NCBI GenBank assembly: GCA_026981635.1
Contig: JALSIF010000289.1
Coordinates: 1 to 10,009, forward strand
Source of the DNA: a bacterium
GTDB taxonomy: Bacteria; 4484-113; JALSIF01
DNA length: 10,009 nucleotides
Direction of reading: 5' to 3'
Part shown: in pieces, positions 61 through 9,599 of the stretch
Layout: each line of letters opens with the position of its first letter
Position numbering within the stretch: position 1 is the first letter of the stretch
Position numbers and translations under genes: made by a program
Notes under the pieces: model-generated
Told to the model about the DNA's origin: nothing
Databases searched by the model: none
Seen by the model: only the letters and a program-made list of their open reading frames with translations

Positions 61-2328
61 GTGGGAGAGGCAAGCGACCCGCGTGATCTTAAGGCCCTGC
101 TGGCACGACGAGGGGAGGCACTGCACAGGATTGTCCAGTGGCTCAAAAACCCCCACCCCGAGCGGGGGAGCTTCGTGGTCAGCGGCGGGCTGGCGGTGGG
201 CAAGAGCGACTTTTTGGACGGGCTGGTGGAACGGATAAAGAGCGATCCGCCCAGGGAGGAGCTCCACATCGGCCTGGTTGGCTTTGGACAGCTTGCCAGC
301 CACGACCTGGTCTGGGGGCTGGCCGAGGTGGTGGACCTGGCCACCGAGGAGCTTATGGCCCAGTGCGACGAGGAGCTGGCCTACGAGATCACCGCCGCCT
401 TCATCCTCCACTTCGGGCAGCCGGAGCAGGCGGCGGAGATGGGAAGGCGTAGCGGCCCGCAGGAGCGCAGGAAGCTGGTGGAGGCCTGGGAGATAGACCC
501 GCGGGACGGCCTGATGGCCTGCTTCATCCGTCTCTTCAACCGCGCCATCAGCAGCTTCTCGCCCGAGAACCTGGCCTCGGCCATGGCCAACCCAGCCGGT
601 CCACCCGCCTACCAGCGGCTGCAGAACTTTGGCGCCAGCCTGTTTATGCTGCTCAACCGGGCCGGCCAGGGGATGCCCTACGAGGGACCCACCTTCGTGC
701 TGGTGTTTGACGACCTGGAGTTTGCCAGCTGGGAGCAGGTGGGTCAGCTTCTGCACCTCGGCACCCGCATCCCCCGCTGCTTCCGGCTTGTCTTCTGCCT
801 CAGTCAGCTTCCCCAGGAGGAGGGCAAGGAGAACTTCTCCCTCCGCTTCAACCCGCTTTTCAAGCAACTTGCCGGGGACAACTGGGTCAACCTGGAGTTT
901 GACCCCGAGGCATCTTCCCTCACCTACCAGGAGGGGGAGAGGGTAGATGTGGAGCACTACATCGGTGAGCTTGCCCGCCTGCCGGAGGAGGGAGTGCTCA
1001 TCGTTGAGGCCCTCTGCTGGGCTCCCTTTGCTCCCCGGGCGTCGGTTGAAGAGCTGGAGGCGCTCACCGCCCTTGATCGGCAGGGGGTGGAGAGGGGGCT
1101 GGGGGCATGCCTTAGGGCGGGACTGGTGGTGCGGCGGCAGATGGGCTACTGGATGGTTCACCCGGGACTGGTTGAACACCTGAGGATCGCCCTGGCCAAG
1201 CGGTGGGGGATTGAGATCCCCTCCCGCGGCAAGCCGGAGCACGAAGACCGCTTCCGCCAGGCGATGGAGATGATCACCGGAGAGATCGCCGTGCGGCTGG
1301 CGGAAGGACTGGAAGAAAACCTGCTCATCCGCCAGGACCCCTACCTGCTCCACAACCTGGTGATCAACCCAGCCGCCATGGAGCTGGTACCGGAGCTGGT
1401 GGGGGAGGTGATGCCGGGGATGGTCTGGTACTACTACCACCACCGGGAGGCGGCCATCGCTGCCAGCCTGGCCAGCCGTTTCCTGGAAGGGGTGGAGCGC
1501 GGCCAGCTCAAGGTCCCCGCCCAAACCAGCGCCTTCGTGCGTGGGGTGCTGGCCAGTTCCCTATATCTGCTTCGCAGGGTGGAGCAGGCGGGGGAGCAGT
1601 TTGACCGCTTCATCGCCTACTGCGAGCAGGTGGGCACTGAGCGGGCGCGGGCGGCCGCCCTCAACCGCAAGGGGTCAATGCTGCTGGAGTTTCGCCACAT
1701 CCAGCAGGCCCAGCCTCCCCTAGAAGAGGCCCTGCGCACCTACAGGGAGCTGGAGGAGAAGGCGGGAGAGGCGGCGGTGCTGGGCAACCTGGGGAGCCTG
1801 GCCATGCTCAAGGGGGAGCTTGCCGAGGCGGAGGAGCTGTTTCGCCGCTCGGCGGAACTGGCCAGGCAGCTTGGGGAGGTGCAGGTGGAGCTAAACGGCC
1901 GGCTCAACCTGGGGCTGGCCTACCTCAACCAGGGCAAGACCGAAGCGGCGCGCGGGGAGCTGGTAGTGGCCCAGCAGCTGGCCGACCAGCTCAGGGACGA
2001 GCACCGCTCGGCCATGGCCCGCTTCTACCTGGGGCTGGCTGCCCAGCGGGAGGGAAGGATGCAGGACGCCCTGGACCTGCTGGGGGCGGCGCGGGAGAGC
2101 TTCATCCGCCTGGGGGACCACTTCCACTACACCTCGGCCGCCCTCCACTTGGTGGAGCTGCTTAACCGGGCGGGCCACCGGGAAAAGGCGCTGGGCTTTG
2201 CCCGTGAGGCGGTGGCCATCGCCGAACAGATCAACCACCCAGCCAAGGAGCGGCTGAGAAAGCTCCTCGCTGATCTCAGCGCCCTGGACAGCCTGGACCA
2301 GCTCCCGGGAGAGGTGGGGAAAGCCTAG
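61..2328 (+). CDS. P-loop (STAND-like) ATPase with C-terminal TPR-like repeats
   Basis: This 755-residue soluble protein has no signal peptide. A Walker A motif, GGLAVGKS, lies at residues 42-49. A hydrophobic strand ending in two aspartates (FVLVFDD, 212-218) fits Walker B and is followed by Glu220. A middle region rich in helices (about 300-480) resembles the winged-helix and linker part of STAND or AAA regulators. From about 505 to 725 there are roughly five TPR-like units of paired amphipathic helices with repeated small residues (LGNLGSLAMLKGELAEAE is typical). In this family an ATPase switch is usually coupled to a protein-binding solenoid in signalling, transcription control or defence. 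No DNA-binding or effector domain is recognisable, so the output is unknown. The GTG at 61 is chosen because a TATAAT box lies 8 nt upstream and the ORF's N-terminus leads directly into the ATPase domain. It converges on the tRNA genes. The domain call is firm and the role is not. Confidence 0.85.
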   Translation: MGEASDPRDLKALLARRGEALHRIVQWLKNPHPERGSFVVSGGLAVGKSDFLDGLVERIKSDPPREELHIGLVGFGQLASHDLVWGLAEVVDLATEELMAQCDEELAYEITAAFILHFGQPEQAAEMGRRSGPQERRKLVEAWEIDPRDGLMACFIRLFNRAISSFSPENLASAMANPAGPPAYQRLQNFGASLFMLLNRAGQGMPYEGPTFVLVFDDLEFASWEQVGQLLHLGTRIPRCFRLVFCLSQLPQEEGKENFSLRFNPLFKQLAGDNWVNLEFDPEASSLTYQEGERVDVEHYIGELARLPEEGVLIVEALCWAPFAPRASVEELEALTALDRQGVERGLGACLRAGLVVRRQMGYWMVHPGLVEHLRIALAKRWGIEIPSRGKPEHEDRFRQAMEMITGEIAVRLAEGLEENLLIRQDPYLLHNLVINPAAMELVPELVGEVMPGMVWYYYHHREAAIAASLASRFLEGVERGQLKVPAQTSAFVRGVLASSLYLLRRVEQAGEQFDRFIAYCEQVGTERARAAALNRKGSMLLEFRHIQQAQPPLEEALRTYRELEEKAGEAAVLGNLGSLAMLKGELAEAEELFRRSAELARQLGEVQVELNGRLNLGLAYLNQGKTEAARGELVVAQQLADQLRDEHRSAMARFYLGLAAQREGRMQDALDLLGAARESFIRLGDHFHYTSAALHLVELLNRAGHREKALGFAREAVAIAEQINHPAKERLRKLLADLSALDSLDQLPGEVGKA

Positions 2329-2364
2329 GCGAGAGGAACCGGGGCGGAGTCCACCACGGAGAAG

Positions 2365-2437
2365 TGGGCCAGGAGGGACTCGAACCCCCAACCAACGGAT
2401 TAAGAGTCCGCTGCTCTACCAATTGAGCTACTGGCCC
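2365..2437 (-). tRNA. tRNA-Lys (CTT)
   Basis: The 73-nt cloverleaf folds completely. The acceptor is GGGCCAG/CTGGCCC, the D stem is GCTC/GAGC and the anticodon stem is GCGGA/TCCGT. The loop CTCTTAA places CTT at positions 34-36, so it reads AAG. The T arm is GGGGG-TTCGAGT-CCCTC and the discriminator is A. The 3' CCA is not encoded (CTT follows), so it must be added by tRNA nucleotidyltransferase. Nucleotide 1 lies 7 nt after a TATACT -10 box, so its 5' end may coincide with the transcription start. Confidence 0.97.
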
Positions 2438-2514: not shown

Positions 2515-2534
2515 CTCAAGTGCCGAGCAGAGAG

Positions 2535-2609
2535 TAGGGAGGGTGGGGCTCGAACCCACGACCTCCGGATCCACAATCCGGCGCTCTAACCAAACTGAGC
2601 TACCTCCCC
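2535..2609 (-). tRNA. tRNA-His (GTG), with U-1/A73 instead of G-1/C73
   Basis: The 75-nt cloverleaf has acceptor GGGGAGG/CCTCCCT (with a G1-U72 wobble), D stem GCTC/GAGC and anticodon stem CCGGA/TCCGG. The loop TTGTGGA gives anticodon GTG (His), and the T arm is GTGGG-TTCGAGC-CCCAC. Discriminator 73 (2535) is A and the base at -1 (2610) is T, so they could form a U-A pair. Nearly all bacterial tRNA-His carry an encoded G-1 paired with C73, the main recognition element for histidyl-tRNA synthetase; known losses are in a group of Alphaproteobacteria. CCA is not encoded. A 5' leader of about 16 nt is expected from the -10 box at 2633-2638. Confidence 0.95.
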
Positions 2610-3491: not shown

Positions 3492-5768
3492 GTGAAGCGG
3501 CTACTGGCCATTGCGCTGGGCATCTTCGTTACCGTCTTTGCCCTAACTCTCCTAGTAGGGAGCATCTTTCTGCTCAAAGAGCGGGCCGGACCAAGCAAGG
3601 AGGTAAGGGAGCTTCGTGCCAAGGCGGAGAGGCTGGAGGAGAACCTTGCGCGAGCGCTGGACGAGCTAATCGCTCGGCCGGAGGACCGGGGAGCCGCCCA
3701 GCGCACCATCAACCTGGCCCTGGAGACCGGTCACCTGGGGCTGGCGCTGGTGGTGGCCCATGCCCTGGGGATCAGGGACAGCCGCCTTGAGGAGGTGGTG
3801 GAGTTTGTGCGCCAGGGGGAGAGGCGGCTGGCCCAGGGCAAGCCCCCCGAGCGGCAGAAGGCGCTAAGCCTCATTGAACGCTTTGAGGATGACCCCCTGG
3901 CCGACTGGATCAGGTTCTATGTGGCCAGCCGCTATGCCGCCACCGGTGACTGGCATTCAGCACTGAACAACTTCCTCCTCATCAGGCATCTTGCCGGGGT
4001 GGAGCAGAGCTGGGTCACCTACTTCGCCCTGCGGGCGGCAATCAAGGCCAACCAGAAGGAGAAGGCGGAGGAGCTCTACACCCGTTCTGGTCGGGTGCCG
4101 GTGGACGCACCCCTGGCCCTGAAGCTCCGCATCCGGCTGATGCGCATCGCCTACACCGCCAAGTTCGTTGACCCGGTCAAGGCCCGCTGGCAACTGAGGG
4201 AGCTGGCCGAGCAGCCGCCCCAGGAGCTGGAGAGGATGAGCGCCCTGGCCCTGGACCGGCTGAGGGCAGAGGTGGCCCGAGAGATCGCCCGCCGGCTGGC
4301 GGAGAAGGATGCCGAGCAGTACCTGCCCTGGGAGGCAGAGCTGTGGCTGGTTTCGGCGCTGGAGGAACCCCGGGCAACCGCCCGCGATCCCGACTTCGTC
4401 GCCCGCCTGCCCAAAGTCGCAGGCCGCTTCGTAGCCCAGCTTGACCAGCTCAGCGGGGAGGAACTCTTCTCCCTTGCCCGTAGCCTGGCGATGACCGGTG
4501 CGGGGCTGCCCGCCCCCTTCAAAGGCTCATCCGTGGAGCGGGCCTTCGTGGCCCTGAGCCTCAAGCCGGAGGAGGGAGGGGAGCGGATGAAGCTGGCGGT
4601 GGCCAGCATGCAACTGAGCGGCGACCCGGAGGAGCTGGTCGCCCTGGTGGCGGCGGAGCTAGCCGAGCGGCTGGTGGGAGAGGGGAAGGAGCTGGCGGTG
4701 GCGGAGGAGCTCATGCGCACCGCAGCAGGTCTCTCCACCCGAGGCTGGCCCAACTACGCCTACCGGGCGGCGGTCATCCGGAGGCTGAGGGGGCGCTCCC
4801 TGCTGCCCAAGGACGCCGAGATGCTGGTGGAGGCGGCACGGGCGGCAACCGACCCTGAGGTGGTGCGCGGGGCAAGCGCCGAGGCGCTGGGCTATGCCGC
4901 CCGGAGCAAGGGCGGGCCGAGTGTGGCTGAGCTGCTTGAGAAGTTGCCCGAAAGTGAGGTCACCCAAGCCTGGCGGGCGCAGCTTAGGGGCAAAGAGAGA
5001 ACCTACACCTTCGGCGAGGTGAGCTTCTACCAGCTCACTCCGGAGCTGGAGAGATTCGGCTGGGCCGACCAAAAGCCCAACTGGAACCGGATCAAGGAGG
5101 CACTGGGGGAGGCGGACCGCTTCGCTGGCTGGGGGCTGATGGACCTGGCCCGCACCTCGGGCAGTGGGCTTACTGCGGTGGGCTATGCGGCAGCCGCCCT
5201 CATTGGGGCGGCAGGCAGGCTCACTCTGCGGGAGCGGGCGGAGCTGGGTGAGCTTCCCACCAGGCCCAGCCTCGCCTACCTGACCATGTTGGCCTGGCTC
5301 TACCGCTCCCCCTACCGGGAGCTGATTGATAGGCTCTCCCGCCAGGCGGGGGTGGAACCCGAGCTGGTGGCAGCGGTGGCCCTGAAGGAGTCGGACTTCA
5401 GGGCCGACGCCCGCTCCCCGGCGGGGGCGGTGGGGATCATGCAGGTGATGCCGGGGGTGGCGCGAAACCTTCCCGGCATCCGGAGCGACCAACTGGAAGA
5501 TCCGGAGGTAAACATCCGGGCGGGAATACGCGTACTTATGGAGGCAGGGCTGGGGCAGGCGCCCATTGAGGAAGTGCTTGCTGCCTATAACTGGGGGCGG
5601 AGTCGAGTTGGGAACCATCCCCTGGGCCCCTCCGAGGAGGGAAGGCGGCTGGTGTGGATAGAGACCCTGCCGATTATTGAGACCGAGTATTTTGTCAAGA
5701 AAGTGATAACCTACCGAGCGCTATACCGACTTATATGGGGGATATTCCCAGCAGATTCTTCAGAATAG
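3492..5768 (+). CDS. Membrane-anchored soluble lytic transglycosylase (Slt type)
   Basis: This 758-residue protein cuts the MurNAc-GlcNAc bond of peptidoglycan with 1,6-anhydro product formation. Residues 1-29 form one hydrophobic segment after MKR, a signal anchor placing the rest outside the cytoplasmic membrane. Residues 40-75 are a charged helix, possibly a coiled coil. A long alpha-helical solenoid (about 75-600) matches the superhelical arm of Slt70-like enzymes. The C-terminal SLT domain (about 615-745) has all family motifs: catalytic Glu633 in ALKESDF, GIMQVMP at 648-654 and AYNWG at 698-702. Length is somewhat above E. coli Slt70 (about 645). The last 25 codons are more AT-rich than the rest. 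GTG 3492 is chosen because it gives a clean anchor sequence and lies 7 nt after an extended -10. The small TPR gene follows after 55 nt. Function is confident; which growth or recycling step it serves is not. Confidence 0.93.
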   Translation: MKRLLAIALGIFVTVFALTLLVGSIFLLKERAGPSKEVRELRAKAERLEENLARALDELIARPEDRGAAQRTINLALETGHLGLALVVAHALGIRDSRLEEVVEFVRQGERRLAQGKPPERQKALSLIERFEDDPLADWIRFYVASRYAATGDWHSALNNFLLIRHLAGVEQSWVTYFALRAAIKANQKEKAEELYTRSGRVPVDAPLALKLRIRLMRIAYTAKFVDPVKARWQLRELAEQPPQELERMSALALDRLRAEVAREIARRLAEKDAEQYLPWEAELWLVSALEEPRATARDPDFVARLPKVAGRFVAQLDQLSGEELFSLARSLAMTGAGLPAPFKGSSVERAFVALSLKPEEGGERMKLAVASMQLSGDPEELVALVAAELAERLVGEGKELAVAEELMRTAAGLSTRGWPNYAYRAAVIRRLRGRSLLPKDAEMLVEAARAATDPEVVRGASAEALGYAARSKGGPSVAELLEKLPESEVTQAWRAQLRGKERTYTFGEVSFYQLTPELERFGWADQKPNWNRIKEALGEADRFAGWGLMDLARTSGSGLTAVGYAAAALIGAAGRLTLRERAELGELPTRPSLAYLTMLAWLYRSPYRELIDRLSRQAGVEPELVAAVALKESDFRADARSPAGAVGIMQVMPGVARNLPGIRSDQLEDPEVNIRAGIRVLMEAGLGQAPIEEVLAAYNWGRSRVGNHPLGPSEEGRRLVWIETLPIIETEYFVKKVITYRALYRLIWGIFPADSSE

Positions 5769-5796: not shown

Positions 5797-5823
5797 CACA
5801 ACCTTAGTGGGTGAGAAGTGAAA

Positions 5824-6276
5824 ATGGGCAGGAAGGAAGACCCAGCTGAAAGGATCAAGCTCTATGGGGATGCCAAGGCTACCCTGAACCCCCTTGATCG
5901 GGCGCGCAAGCGCAAGCGCCTCAAGCAGGCGGAGGCCGCCTATCAGGAGAACCCGGAGGACCCCCAGCGGATCATTGAGTATGCCGATGCCCTGTTTGAC
6001 ATGGGCGAGCTGGAAAAGTCCCTGGAGCTACTGGAGGGGCTGGGGGAGCAGACCTCAAACGACCCTGAGCTGCTCTACAACCTGGGCTTCATCTACCTCA
6101 AGCTGGGCAAGGTAGACGAGGCGGTGGGCTACTTTAAGCAGGTGATAGAGAAGGCTCCCGATCACCCCCTGGCCCGCAGTGCGGGCTATGAGCTTTGGAC
6201 CATTGACCCAGAGTCCTACTCTCCCTTTGAACGCCGACGGGTGGAGAAGGCCCACAGCGAGACGGCCAAGGAGTAG
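5824..6276 (+). CDS. Small TPR protein
   Basis: About 150 residues, with no signal peptide or membrane segment, so probably cytoplasmic. The first 40 residues are very basic (a RARKRKRLKQ stretch). Two to three TPR units cover about 35-120, with typical positions in YADALFDMGELEKSLELL and LYNLGFIYLKLGKVDEAVGYFKQVIEKAPDHP. A charged tail ends in SETAKE. TPR proteins bind partner proteins; the partner is unknown, although the upstream transglycosylase and downstream terminase-like gene lie on the same strand. ATG 5824 is preferred: a weak SD-like GGGTGA (5809-5814) lies 9 nt upstream of it. The alternative GTG at 5818 adds two residues but leaves only 3 nt to that SD. A TATACT box at 5791 suggests its own promoter. 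Confidence 0.85.
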   Translation: MGRKEDPAERIKLYGDAKATLNPLDRARKRKRLKQAEAAYQENPEDPQRIIEYADALFDMGELEKSLELLEGLGEQTSNDPELLYNLGFIYLKLGKVDEAVGYFKQVIEKAPDHPLARSAGYELWTIDPESYSPFERRRVEKAHSETAKE

Positions 6277-6321: not shown

Positions 6322-7614
6322 ATGTCGGTCTCTTCCCACGCCCTGGCCCACCTCTTCCGCCTGTTTGGCTACCAGCCCCATCCGGCCCAGCTCAGGGTTC
6401 ACCTCTCCCCTGCCCCCCGCCGGCTGGTCATCTGTGGTCGTCGCTTTGGCAAGACCACCCTGGCCGCGGTGGAGGCAGCGGTGGGTCTGCTGGCTGGTGC
6501 CCGGGTATGGGTGGTGGCCCCCACCTACCGCCAGTGCGGGCGAACCCTGGCCGTGGCAGGAAAGATGCTGGTGCGCATTCCCACCCTCGGGGAGAGCATG
6601 GCCATCTCCAGACAGCCCCCCCGCCTCTCCCTCTGGGGAGGGGTGATTGAGGGCAAAAGCGGGGAGAATCCGGCGGGGCTTCTGGGGGAGCGGGTGGACC
6701 TGCTCATCCTGGATGAGGCGGCTAGGCTTTCCCGCGAGGTGTGGGAGAGCCACCTCAGCCCCGCACTGATTGAGGGGGGGAGGGCGCTGATCATCTCCAC
6801 CCCCTACGGCAGGAGCTGGCTACATGAGCTCTTCCAGCGGGCGAAGGAGTGGGAGGAGTGGGAAGTCTTCCAGTTTCCCAGCGAGGCCAATCCCCTCATC
6901 CCCACCGGTCTGATTGAGCGTGAGCGGCGTCGGCTTCCCGAGGATGTCTTTGCCCGGGAGTACCTGGCTGAGTTTGTCCTGCCCCAGGAGCGGGCGGTGC
7001 CCGAGTTTGACCCGGAGGTCCATGTGGGGGAGGTTGAGTTTGACCCCTGGCTAGACCTCTACCGGGCGATTGACTTCGGCTTTAGCGATCCCTTTGTCTG
7101 TCTGGACTTCCAGATCACCCCCCAGGGGCAAGTGAGGGTGATCGGGGAGTACTACCGGCGGATGACGGTGCTTAGCGAGCATGTCAGGGAGCTTCGCAAG
7201 GGAGAGAAGAGCTACCCCTTTGCCCTGCCGCCGGGGCGGGACTACTACCGGTCCGGGGGGGAAGCCGGGGAGCGGATCCACTATGCCGCCGACCCCAGCG
7301 GCGGGGGGCTTTTGGCGGAGCTCAGGCTGCGCCTGGGTCGGCCCATCATCGCCCGGCGGGTGCTGAGGGAAAGCTCTTTCATGGAGCTGAGAGAGCTGTT
7401 TCGCTTGCGGATTGAGGGGGAGCCGGCCATCCTCATCCACCCCCGCTGCGAGAACCTGATCAGGGAGCTGAGCGAACTTCGTCTCCACCCGGAGACGGGG
7501 CAGAGCCTGGGCAGTGATCATGCGGTGGACGCCCTGCGCTATGGGCTGGCTGCCTTCCTGCCTTGGCGGGAACCCGTGGAGATGGGATGGACGGGGGGAG
7601 GCTGGCCGCCCTAG
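6322..7614 (+). CDS. Terminase large subunit-like ATPase/nuclease (TerL-like), outside a phage cluster
   Basis: This 430-residue protein has both halves of a phage DNA-packaging motor. In the ATPase half, Walker A is GRRFGKTT (39-46), the VVAPTYRQ segment is at 64-71, Walker B is LLILDE with catalytic Glu132 (127-132), and the coupling motif IISTPYG is at 157-163. The RNase H-like nuclease half keeps its acidic residues: Asp251 in AIDFGFSDP, Asp324 in AADPS, and Asp403 (or Asp399) in SDHAVDALRY. Terminases translocate DNA into a prohead and cut it at the end of packaging. Length is at the low end for TerL. No portal, small terminase, protease or capsid gene is nearby, and base composition matches its neighbours. 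It could be a remnant, part of a dispersed gene-transfer-agent locus, or a domesticated enzyme. GGGAG just before ATG 6322 is too close to be an ideal SD. A TAGGCT -10-like hexamer lies 12 nt upstream. Confidence 0.9.
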   Translation: MSVSSHALAHLFRLFGYQPHPAQLRVHLSPAPRRLVICGRRFGKTTLAAVEAAVGLLAGARVWVVAPTYRQCGRTLAVAGKMLVRIPTLGESMAISRQPPRLSLWGGVIEGKSGENPAGLLGERVDLLILDEAARLSREVWESHLSPALIEGGRALIISTPYGRSWLHELFQRAKEWEEWEVFQFPSEANPLIPTGLIERERRRLPEDVFAREYLAEFVLPQERAVPEFDPEVHVGEVEFDPWLDLYRAIDFGFSDPFVCLDFQITPQGQVRVIGEYYRRMTVLSEHVRELRKGEKSYPFALPPGRDYYRSGGEAGERIHYAADPSGGGLLAELRLRLGRPIIARRVLRESSFMELRELFRLRIEGEPAILIHPRCENLIRELSELRLHPETGQSLGSDHAVDALRYGLAAFLPWREPVEMGWTGGGWPP

Positions 7615-8534
7615 GGAATGTAGCCGCGGCGGCGCTCCCGTTCCTCCTTCTCAATGCGAAGCTGGGTCTGGCGCGCCCAGCGGCGCATCTTGTTGAGGGC
7701 GCGGCGCTCAATCTGGCGCACCCGTTCGCGTCCCATGCCGAAGAGGCGGGCCACCTCTTTGAGGGTCATGGGCGGGTCGTAGGATTCCTCCCCCTCCTCG
7801 GTCAGGCCGTAGCGCTTGATGATCACCTGGCGCTCAAGGTCGGTGAGCTGGGCGAGGAAGTGGCGGATCTGGAGGGTGTTTAGCACCTTCTGGGGGCCGT
7901 CCTCCTCCGAAGCGGGAATGCGCTCTTTGAGCTCCCTGCCCTCCTCTGCCGATTCGTTTCCGTCGGAGTGCTCAAAGCTGGTGTCCAGGCTCATCACGAA
8001 GGGGATGGAGTTGTGGTAGCGCTCCACCTCCTCCACCGTCATGCCGAGCACCTCGGCGATCTCCTCGGTGGTGGGCTCGCGGCCGTGCTCGCGGCGGAAG
8101 GCGTCCTGGGCCTTGCGGATCTTGTGGACCCGCTCAAAGACATGTTCGGGGACCCGGATCAGGTTGTGGTTTTTGGTGATGTAGCGAAGGATGCGCTGCT
8201 TGATCCACCAGGTGGCGTAGGTGGAGAACTTGTAGCCCAGCTCGGGCTTGAAGCGCTCAATGGCGATGAGCAGGCCCACATTGCCCTCGCTTATGAGGTC
8301 GGCCAGGGGAATGTTCAGGTTCTTGTAGCGCTTGGCAATGGAGACCACCAGGCGGAGGTTGGACTCGGCAAGCTTGCGGCGGGCCTCCTCCCGCTCCCAC
8401 TCGGGGAGGGACTCGTCCACTATCTTTTGGGTTATCTCCCGCTCCTCCTCGGGGGTAAGCAGGGACTGGCGAGAGATGAAGTCAAGGTGGGCCGCCAGGG
8501 CGTTCTCCAGCCGCTCCTTCTCTGAATAGGTCAA
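7611..8534 (-). CDS. Sigma-70 family RNA polymerase sigma factor (group 1/2-like)
   Basis: The protein is 307 residues. Region 1.2 is about 11-35. Region 2 is about 55-120, with NLRLVVSIAKRY, DLISEGNVGLL and the -10-binding segment YATWWIKQRI at 106-115. Region 3 is about 126-186. Region 4 is about 220-285, with the HTH in LKEVARLFGMGRERVRQIE. Region 1.1 is absent, and the usual PSR-containing end of primary sigma factors is replaced by a highly charged tail. At the position of E. coli sigma-70 Thr440 there is Leu116, while the Gln437 equivalent (Gln113) is kept. Both details favour a group 2 factor, but in a little-studied phylum a primary factor is possible. TTG 8534 is the start: upstream in frame is a stop after two codons, and a near-perfect SD, GGAGGTGA (8548-8541), lies 6 nt before it. 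The gene converges on the terminase-like gene, sharing CTAG at their stops. Confidence 0.95.
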   Translation of the reverse strand: MTYSEKERLENALAAHLDFISRQSLLTPEEEREITQKIVDESLPEWEREEARRKLAESNLRLVVSIAKRYKNLNIPLADLISEGNVGLLIAIERFKPELGYKFSTYATWWIKQRILRYITKNHNLIRVPEHVFERVHKIRKAQDAFRREHGREPTTEEIAEVLGMTVEEVERYHNSIPFVMSLDTSFEHSDGNESAEEGRELKERIPASEEDGPQKVLNTLQIRHFLAQLTDLERQVIIKRYGLTEEGEESYDPPMTLKEVARLFGMGRERVRQIERRALNKMRRWARQTQLRIEKEERERRRGYIP

Positions 8535-8621: not shown

Positions 8622-9599
8622 CTACCGGTCAAGGTTGGTTCTAAGTCCCAGCCCCAACCGCTGGAAAAGACCCACAATCAGCAGATCGGTTCCCTTTCTG
8701 GCCTCCAGCTTCTCGTATTCCGGGGGGACCGAGGTGAGGGAGGAGCAGTCCAACTCGCGGGGGGAAAGACCCCGGGTGGAAAAGTCAAGCAGGGTTCCAC
8801 CTGAGCGGGCCTTCATGGAGAGAGGAAGACCGGTCTCCTCGTCCAGGAAGAAGACAAACTCCCCCCGCTCTCCCACCTCAATGCGGTAGCCCTCAACCGG
8901 CCGCTCACCCACCGCCCGTCGGCCCAGCCGCCTGAGGGCAAGGCGAGGGATCTGGGAGACATCCTCCACCCCCTCCTCGGCCAGCCTGGCCAGCTCCCGG
9001 CGGGTGGCCTTCCACCAGCGCTCAACCCACTCATCACCCATCGCTACGATGCCCAGGACCAGCGGATCCCGCAGGGGATCCAACCGGTCCAGGGGAAGTT
9101 CCTGCCAGGATCGGGTGGAGGGGAAGATGACCAAGAGGCGGTTTTGCGGACGGTCCACCACCAGGACGATGGGGGGAGGGGAAGGGGCGGGCTGGGTGGT
9201 CTCCTGCCCCGGGCCCTCACCGGTGGGCTGGCCCCGCTTTTCCTCCTCCTGCTTCCGGCCGCTCTCACCGGTACGGCGGCGGCTGGCCAGCTGGTAGGTG
9301 AGATCCTCCGCTGTGGAAGGCCCGGCTGAGGGGCCGCCTTGCTCCCCTTCCCTGCCCTGGGCTTCCTCCTCGCCCTCGCCCGCCGGAGGAGGGATGAGGG
9401 GTGGGAGGAAAAACTCAATGCGGGTTATCCCCTGGGCATAGACCATGGTGCCGTGGAGGAGCAGGCGGGAGGCACTCCCCTGGCGCAGGGTCACCTCATA
9501 GGGGGTGCTCAGGGCAGTACAGGTCTCCTCTGCTGGAACTGGCTGCGTCGCCAGCAGAGCGACCAGGAGAGCTGCTGGTATGAGGGAAAGGACTCTCAC
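8622..9599 (-). CDS. Secreted LolA-like protein with a low-complexity insert
   Basis: This 325-residue protein begins with a signal peptide (hydrophobic 3-20, probable cleavage after VPA at 21-23). The mature part starts with strands typical of the LolA/LolB-like fold (SASRLLLHGTMVYAQGITRIEF, in pieces). It continues after an insert with IVLVVDRPQNRLLVIFPSTRSW and the late segment FVFFLDEETGLPLSMKA, the usual order of this half-barrel fold. Such proteins bind lipid-like ligands in or outside the periplasm; the exact ligand is unknown. The insert, about 65-142, is rich in Pro, Gly, Glu and Gln and should be disordered. Only two cysteines are present (27 and 285), possibly a disulfide. The first is not in a lipobox, so it is not a lipoprotein. 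GTG 9599 lies 7 nt after TAAACT with no SD. It is divergent from the secreted protein at 9766, with the sigma gene 87 nt downstream. The fold call is moderate. Confidence 0.8.
   Translation of the reverse strand: MRVLSLIPAALLVALLATQPVPAEETCTALSTPYEVTLRQGSASRLLLHGTMVYAQGITRIEFFLPPLIPPPAGEGEEEAQGREGEQGGPSAGPSTAEDLTYQLASRRRTGESGRKQEEEKRGQPTGEGPGQETTQPAPSPPPIVLVVDRPQNRLLVIFPSTRSWQELPLDRLDPLRDPLVLGIVAMGDEWVERWWKATRRELARLAEEGVEDVSQIPRLALRRLGRRAVGERPVEGYRIEVGERGEFVFFLDEETGLPLSMKARSGGTLLDFSTRGLSPRELDCSSLTSVPPEYEKLEARKGTDLLIVGLFQRLGLGLRTNLDR

What the first reader, a model, noticed from the sequence alone, without database searches (positions are those of the whole stretch)
6322..7614. Intact terminase large subunit standing alone among chromosomal genes
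Walker A, Walker B with catalytic Glu132, the coupling motif and the nuclease acids Asp251, Asp324 and Asp403 are all kept, so it is under selection rather than decaying. Yet there is no portal, capsid, protease or small terminase within several kb on either side, and its composition matches its neighbours. This fits a gene-transfer-agent with dispersed genes, or a TerL domesticated for another DNA-translocating or cutting job. Its neighbours are a basic TPR protein and a sigma factor.
Basis: partly seen in the sequence, partly recalled or inferred. Interest (0 to 1): 0.75.

Follow-up and report, generated by a model that had tools for sequence, protein, structure and literature searches.

The report
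Orphan phage DNA-packaging motor in chromosome
A bacterium's chromosome carries one intact gene for a virus DNA-packaging motor and cutter with no other virus gene beside it; similar orphans sit at unrelated sites in relatives and in Anaerolineae, so it is probably a captured phage gene, but whether it does a job is not shown.

Summary
ORF 6322-7614 is a complete two-domain phage large terminase (TerL: ATPase plus RNase H-type nuclease) with its catalytic residues, packed between cellular genes (TPR gene 45 bp upstream; sigma-factor stop codon overlapping its own). No portal or capsid model used here hits the 85%-complete genome. Two corrections. The invariant third nuclease acid is Asp399; Asp403 is conserved only in part of the family. 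The TPR-TerL-sigma order is not conserved: lytic transglycosylase-TPR is an old pair; in relatives the sigma gene and TerL lie elsewhere. Of 10 genomes of the class, 4 carry such an orphan TerL, each at a different site, two with an upstream TerS-like gene. A separate Anaerolineae TerL clade holds 16 orphan loci at about 15 sites; one pair there shows dN/dS 0.17. Best reading: a captured phage packaging gene, kept intact, in a recurrent pattern of orphan terminases. Selection on the window gene itself cannot be measured (closest relatives 37-39% identical). A dispersed gene transfer agent is not supported; domestication is possible but unproven. The most novel open reading is a capsid-less TerS-TerL cassette that exploits heads of infecting phages.

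The parts
6322..7614 (+). orphan phage-type large terminase (TerL), 430 aa, ATPase + RNase H-type nuclease
6436..6456 (+). Walker A (GRRFGKT, residues 39-45)
   Evidence: core residues kept in the 80 phage relatives
6700..6717 (+). Walker B with catalytic Glu132 (LLILDE, residues 127-132)
7072..7074 (+). nuclease Asp251
   Evidence: invariant
7291..7293 (+). nuclease Asp324 (Glu in the Anaerolineae orphans)
7516..7518 (+). nuclease Asp399, the family-wide third acid
5818..6276 (+). small TPR protein, cellular; paired with the lytic transglycosylase in several genomes of the class
3492..5768 (+). SLT-domain lytic transglycosylase, cellular neighbour
7611..8534 (-). RpoD-like sigma-70 factor, convergent; its stop overlaps the TerL stop (CTAG, 7611-7614)

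Best explanation
The gene is a TerL captured from a tailed phage and kept as an intact packaging motor-nuclease in the chromosome. Shown: full fold and catalytic residues, cellular neighbours, clean junctions, host-like codon usage, no portal or capsid found in the genome by the models used, and recurrence of orphan TerLs at unrelated sites in this class and in Anaerolineae. Inferred: the original unit was a TerS-TerL pair (still seen in two relatives and in most of the Anaerolineae orphans); in this genome TerS has been lost or left behind. Inferred mechanism if expressed: the ATPase pumps and the nuclease cuts double-stranded DNA, and with no head of its own it could act only by docking on the portal of an infecting phage (packaging the wrong DNA or spoiling packaging) or as a stand-alone nuclease-translocase. 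No step of that mechanism is demonstrated.
For: Family and fold. Lone context in window, G002, G003 and G004 at four unrelated loci. TerS-like HTH gene directly upstream in G002 and G004. TerL 57% but TerS only 31% identical between G002 and G004. Capsid and portal searches negative in G000. Phage relatives in IMG/VR have TerL-portal-capsid order, so the ancestor was a phage gene. Anaerolineae: orphan TerL clade, 16 loci, TerS-like ORF upstream in 12 of them, no structural gene among the families shown for 75 flanking ORFs, flanks not shared, dN/dS 0.17 in one pair. Control: of 63 other genomic TerL loci of this family, 55 have a portal-like ORF directly downstream and 3 more show one on inspection.
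Against: No TerS by the window gene or elsewhere in G000. Monophyly of the four class TerLs is weak (51/78; together in 80% of bootstrap trees against the other groups), so they may be separate captures. Window TerL is on a long branch (1.64) and keeps only 52 of 85 positions that are at least 90% conserved in phages, like G002 (51) and G004 (49). Selection on it is not measurable. The genome is a MAG of 317 contigs, 85% complete. Nothing shows expression.
Confidence: 0.5

Rival explanations
1. Last surviving gene of a decayed prophage, without function, intact by chance or youth.
For: Patchy presence (4 of 10 genomes); decay products exist in the class: a 158-bp TerS fragment (92% identical DNA) next to two tRNA genes in G002 and a TerS-like HTH ORF without TerL in G004 contig C59. 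G003 lacks the HTH part of TerS.
Against: No phage debris around it; 45 bp and -4 bp junctions; neighbour-like codon usage; catalytic residues kept on a long branch; the same state recurs in 16 Anaerolineae loci, one pair with dN/dS 0.17.
Confidence: 0.3
2. TerL domesticated for a cellular DNA-translocating or DNA-cutting job.
For: Clean embedding, host-like composition, intact active sites; a promoter-like site before TPR and no terminator-like site between TPR and TerL, so co-transcription is possible; purifying selection on an analogous orphan.
Against: Not conserved across the class and never at the same locus, unlike a housekeeping gene; no conserved partner gene; no defence-family match.
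Confidence: 0.15
3. Gene transfer agent with dispersed genes.
For: Intact TerL among chromosomal genes, no linked structural genes.
Against: No HK97 capsid, HK97 portal or phage-kin portal in G000; the one class genome with such HK97 genes, G004, has them in an ordinary prophage with its own different TerL (contig C48).
Confidence: 0.05

Closest known systems
Phage TerL of the P74-26/G20c (Thermus phage) type, PHROG phrog_2
   Same: ATPase domain 34% identical at Z 29; nuclease domain fold; catalytic motifs
   Different: no TerS, portal or capsid nearby; chromosomal context; several positions invariant in phage kin changed
Phage-inducible chromosomal islands (PICIs, satellites that redirect packaging; PMC6092414, PMC6739421, titles and abstracts seen only)
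   Same: packaging genes without a full structural set would have to use a helper phage's heads
   Different: no integrase, regulator or other island gene found; here TerL itself, and in relatives a TerS-TerL pair only
Gene transfer agents (RcGTA type; from general knowledge)
   Same: chromosomal, host-like composition
   Different: no portal or capsid found; patchy, not vertically conserved
Orphan TerS-TerL pairs of Anaerolineae (described here)
   Same: terminase alone among cellular genes, mostly a single full-length copy per genome, scattered sites
   Different: separate TerL clade; second nuclease acid is Glu; TerS-like gene usually present

Membership tests
Phage large terminase (TerL) | Walker A/B ATPase with catalytic Glu and coupling motif | tested here: met
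Phage large terminase (TerL) | RNase H-type nuclease domain with three acids | tested here: met
   Asp251, Asp324, Asp399; Z 17.8 to P22 and 16.4 to SPP1 nuclease
Phage large terminase (TerL) | packages DNA through a portal | not testable with these tools
   no biochemical test possible
Prophage | linked structural, integration or lysis genes | tested here: not met
   the window's genes with family matches are cellular; contig ends limit the view to 6.3 kb and 2.4 kb
Gene transfer agent | portal and capsid genes in the same genome | tested here: inconclusive
   three searches negative, but genome 85% complete and other capsid types not searched
Gene transfer agent | vertical conservation among relatives | tested here: not met
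   4 of 10 class genomes, four unrelated loci
PICI-like satellite | integrase, regulator and packaging-redirection genes between attachment sites | tested here: not met
   none among the window's genes; no terminal repeats stood out
TerS-TerL orphan pair | TerS-like HTH gene directly upstream | tested here: not met
   upstream gene is a cellular TPR protein; no TerS of the G002/G004 type in G000; met in G002 and G004

The most novel reading that the evidence does not exclude
Capsid-less TerS-TerL cassettes are a recurrent class of chromosomal packaging modules (selfish or anti-phage) that redirect or sabotage DNA packaging in the heads of infecting phages; the window holds a TerL-only member.
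Probability: 0.2. Interest if true: 0.8.

Novelty: new variant of a known kind. Interest (0 to 1): 0.5.

Why it matters
Terminases normally sit beside portal genes. Intact orphan terminases kept at unrelated chromosomal sites would mean either that hosts re-use packaging motors or that a minimal packaging parasite exists. The Anaerolineae orphan clade makes this testable with dN/dS and expression data. Two literature searches aimed at orphan or domesticated terminases found nothing relevant in the open-licence library, which is no proof of novelty.

Tried and rejected
Close relatives of the window TerL by single-protein scans of genome and viral contigs: none; the same for G003 and G002 TerL in viral contigs. 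Defence-system models: no match to TerL. Terminal inverted repeats or target-site duplications around the orphans: nothing convincing. dN/dS of the window gene: not possible at 37-39% identity. Empty-site comparison for the window: no genome of the same family held. High-copy transposon: not supported, each genome with a lone locus showed one full-length copy of this type (G061 and G062 have further, different TerLs). My first control for portal neighbours was inflated by shadow ORFs of TerL and was redone. Two further literature searches returned nothing.

Full report
What is there. The window is one complete contig (C289, 10,009 bp) of a 1.75-Mb metagenome-assembled genome in 317 contigs, 85% complete. 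ORF 6322-7614 encodes 430 aa matching phage large terminases (phrog_2 E 1.9e-38; P74-26 TerL ATPase, E 6e-24). The predicted structure (pLDDT 89) has both domains: ATPase (Z 29.1 to P74-26) and RNase H-type nuclease (Z 17.8 to P22, 16.4 to SPP1). All catalytic motifs are present.

Surroundings. Upstream genes are an ATPase-like TPR protein, two tRNA genes, a short-chain dehydrogenase, a lytic transglycosylase and a small TPR protein; downstream, convergent, is an RpoD-like sigma factor. TerL starts 45 bp after the TPR gene and its stop overlaps the sigma stop (CTAG, 7611-7614). The lytic transglycosylase-TPR pair lies together in several genomes of the class, while the best sigma matches lie on other contigs. 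So both flanks of TerL have their best matches within the class, and a binning error is unlikely. Codon usage of TerL fits its neighbours (z -0.6). The sigma protein has a C-terminal tail of about 15 residues absent from the relatives that aligned well, which could mark an old insertion; this is only suggestive.

Relatives in the class. Of ten genomes, four have such a TerL: G000, G002, G003, G004. In G002, G003 and G004 it also lies among cellular genes, at different loci. G002 and G004 have a TerS-like helix-turn-helix gene directly upstream (33% identical to each other); G003 has an upstream ORF without the helix-turn-helix part. G002 holds a 158-bp TerS fragment, 92% identical, beside tRNA-Val and tRNA-Met on another contig, and G004 a second TerS-like ORF on contig C59. 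So related sequences have entered more than once, or moved, and decayed in this family. G004 also has an ordinary HK97-type prophage with another TerL (contig C48). HK97 capsid (PF05065), HK97 portal (PF04860) and the portal of the nearest phage kin were not found in G000.

Phage kin and tree. Viral contigs with related TerLs (28-32% identical to the window) carry TerL, portal and capsid in order. In a tree of 61 TerLs the class sequences fall on the phage side; whether the four form one clade is unsure (51/78; together in 80% of bootstrap trees against the other labelled groups). The window branch is long (1.64).

A parallel case. A search of 298 genomes of the class of an Anaerolineae genome gave 34 with a match at E 1e-20 or better. 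One strongly supported clade (100/99) holds 16 orphan loci plus one TerL with a portal within 2 kb downstream and one undecided locus. A TerS-like ORF precedes 12 of the 16. Among 75 ORFs flanking 15 of these loci, no structural family was among the 25 PHROG families listed (36 matched, 11 not shown), and flanks are not shared except in one pair of close genomes. One of the 16, L288, has two downstream ORFs that look tail-like by eye but match no PHROG. The close pair gives dN 0.047 and dS 0.278 for TerL: purifying selection on an orphan terminase. As a control, of 63 other genomic TerL loci of this family 55 have a portal-like ORF directly downstream, and three more have one on inspection.

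Interpretation. The best-supported reading is capture of a phage packaging gene, originally with TerS, kept intact. What it does is inferred. Without heads, a terminase could act on DNA only through the portal of an infecting phage or as a free nuclease-translocase. A neutral relic remains possible (0.3) because selection on this copy cannot be measured. A dispersed gene transfer agent is unlikely (0.05). Searches of the open-licence literature for orphan or domesticated terminases returned nothing relevant.

Limits. Incomplete MAG; no close relative of this genome; window equals contig; no expression data; portal and capsid searches used three models only.

Noticed in passing
L283, L285-L291, L293, L066-L068, L072, L073, L076 (Anaerolineae): Clade of orphan TerL loci, most with an upstream TerS-like ORF, at about 15 unrelated chromosomal sites; possibly more striking than the window itself.
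   Followed up: partly
L307:6096-6253 (G002 contig C9): 158-bp fragment of the G002 TerS gene, 92% identical, next to tRNA-Val and tRNA-Met.
   Followed up: partly
L308:300-755 (G004 contig C59): TerS-like helix-turn-helix ORF (63% identical over the HTH to the G004 TerS) without a TerL beside it, near a contig end.
   Followed up: no
L019:8237-10586 (G013) and L097:433-3266 (Armatimonadota): TerL followed by a Mu/P23-45-type portal; in L019 the pair sits next to apparent chromosomal genes, a possible two-gene remnant.
   Followed up: no
L330:2932-4596 (G492): Another TerL that appears to lie alone, downstream of a RecN-like ORF (by eye), in an unrelated genome.
   Followed up: no
window 61-2328: Protein with an apparent N-terminal P-loop (by eye) and C-terminal TPR repeats, AfsR-like only in the repeats; role unknown.
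   Followed up: no
window 8622-9599 (-): Protein with a signal-peptide-like start (by eye) that matches no family searched and has atypical codon usage for the window (z -4.5).
   Followed up: no
window 2364-2437 and 2534-2609 (-): tRNA-Lys(CTT) and tRNA-His(GTG), common integration sites, but cellular genes lie between them and TerL.
   Followed up: no
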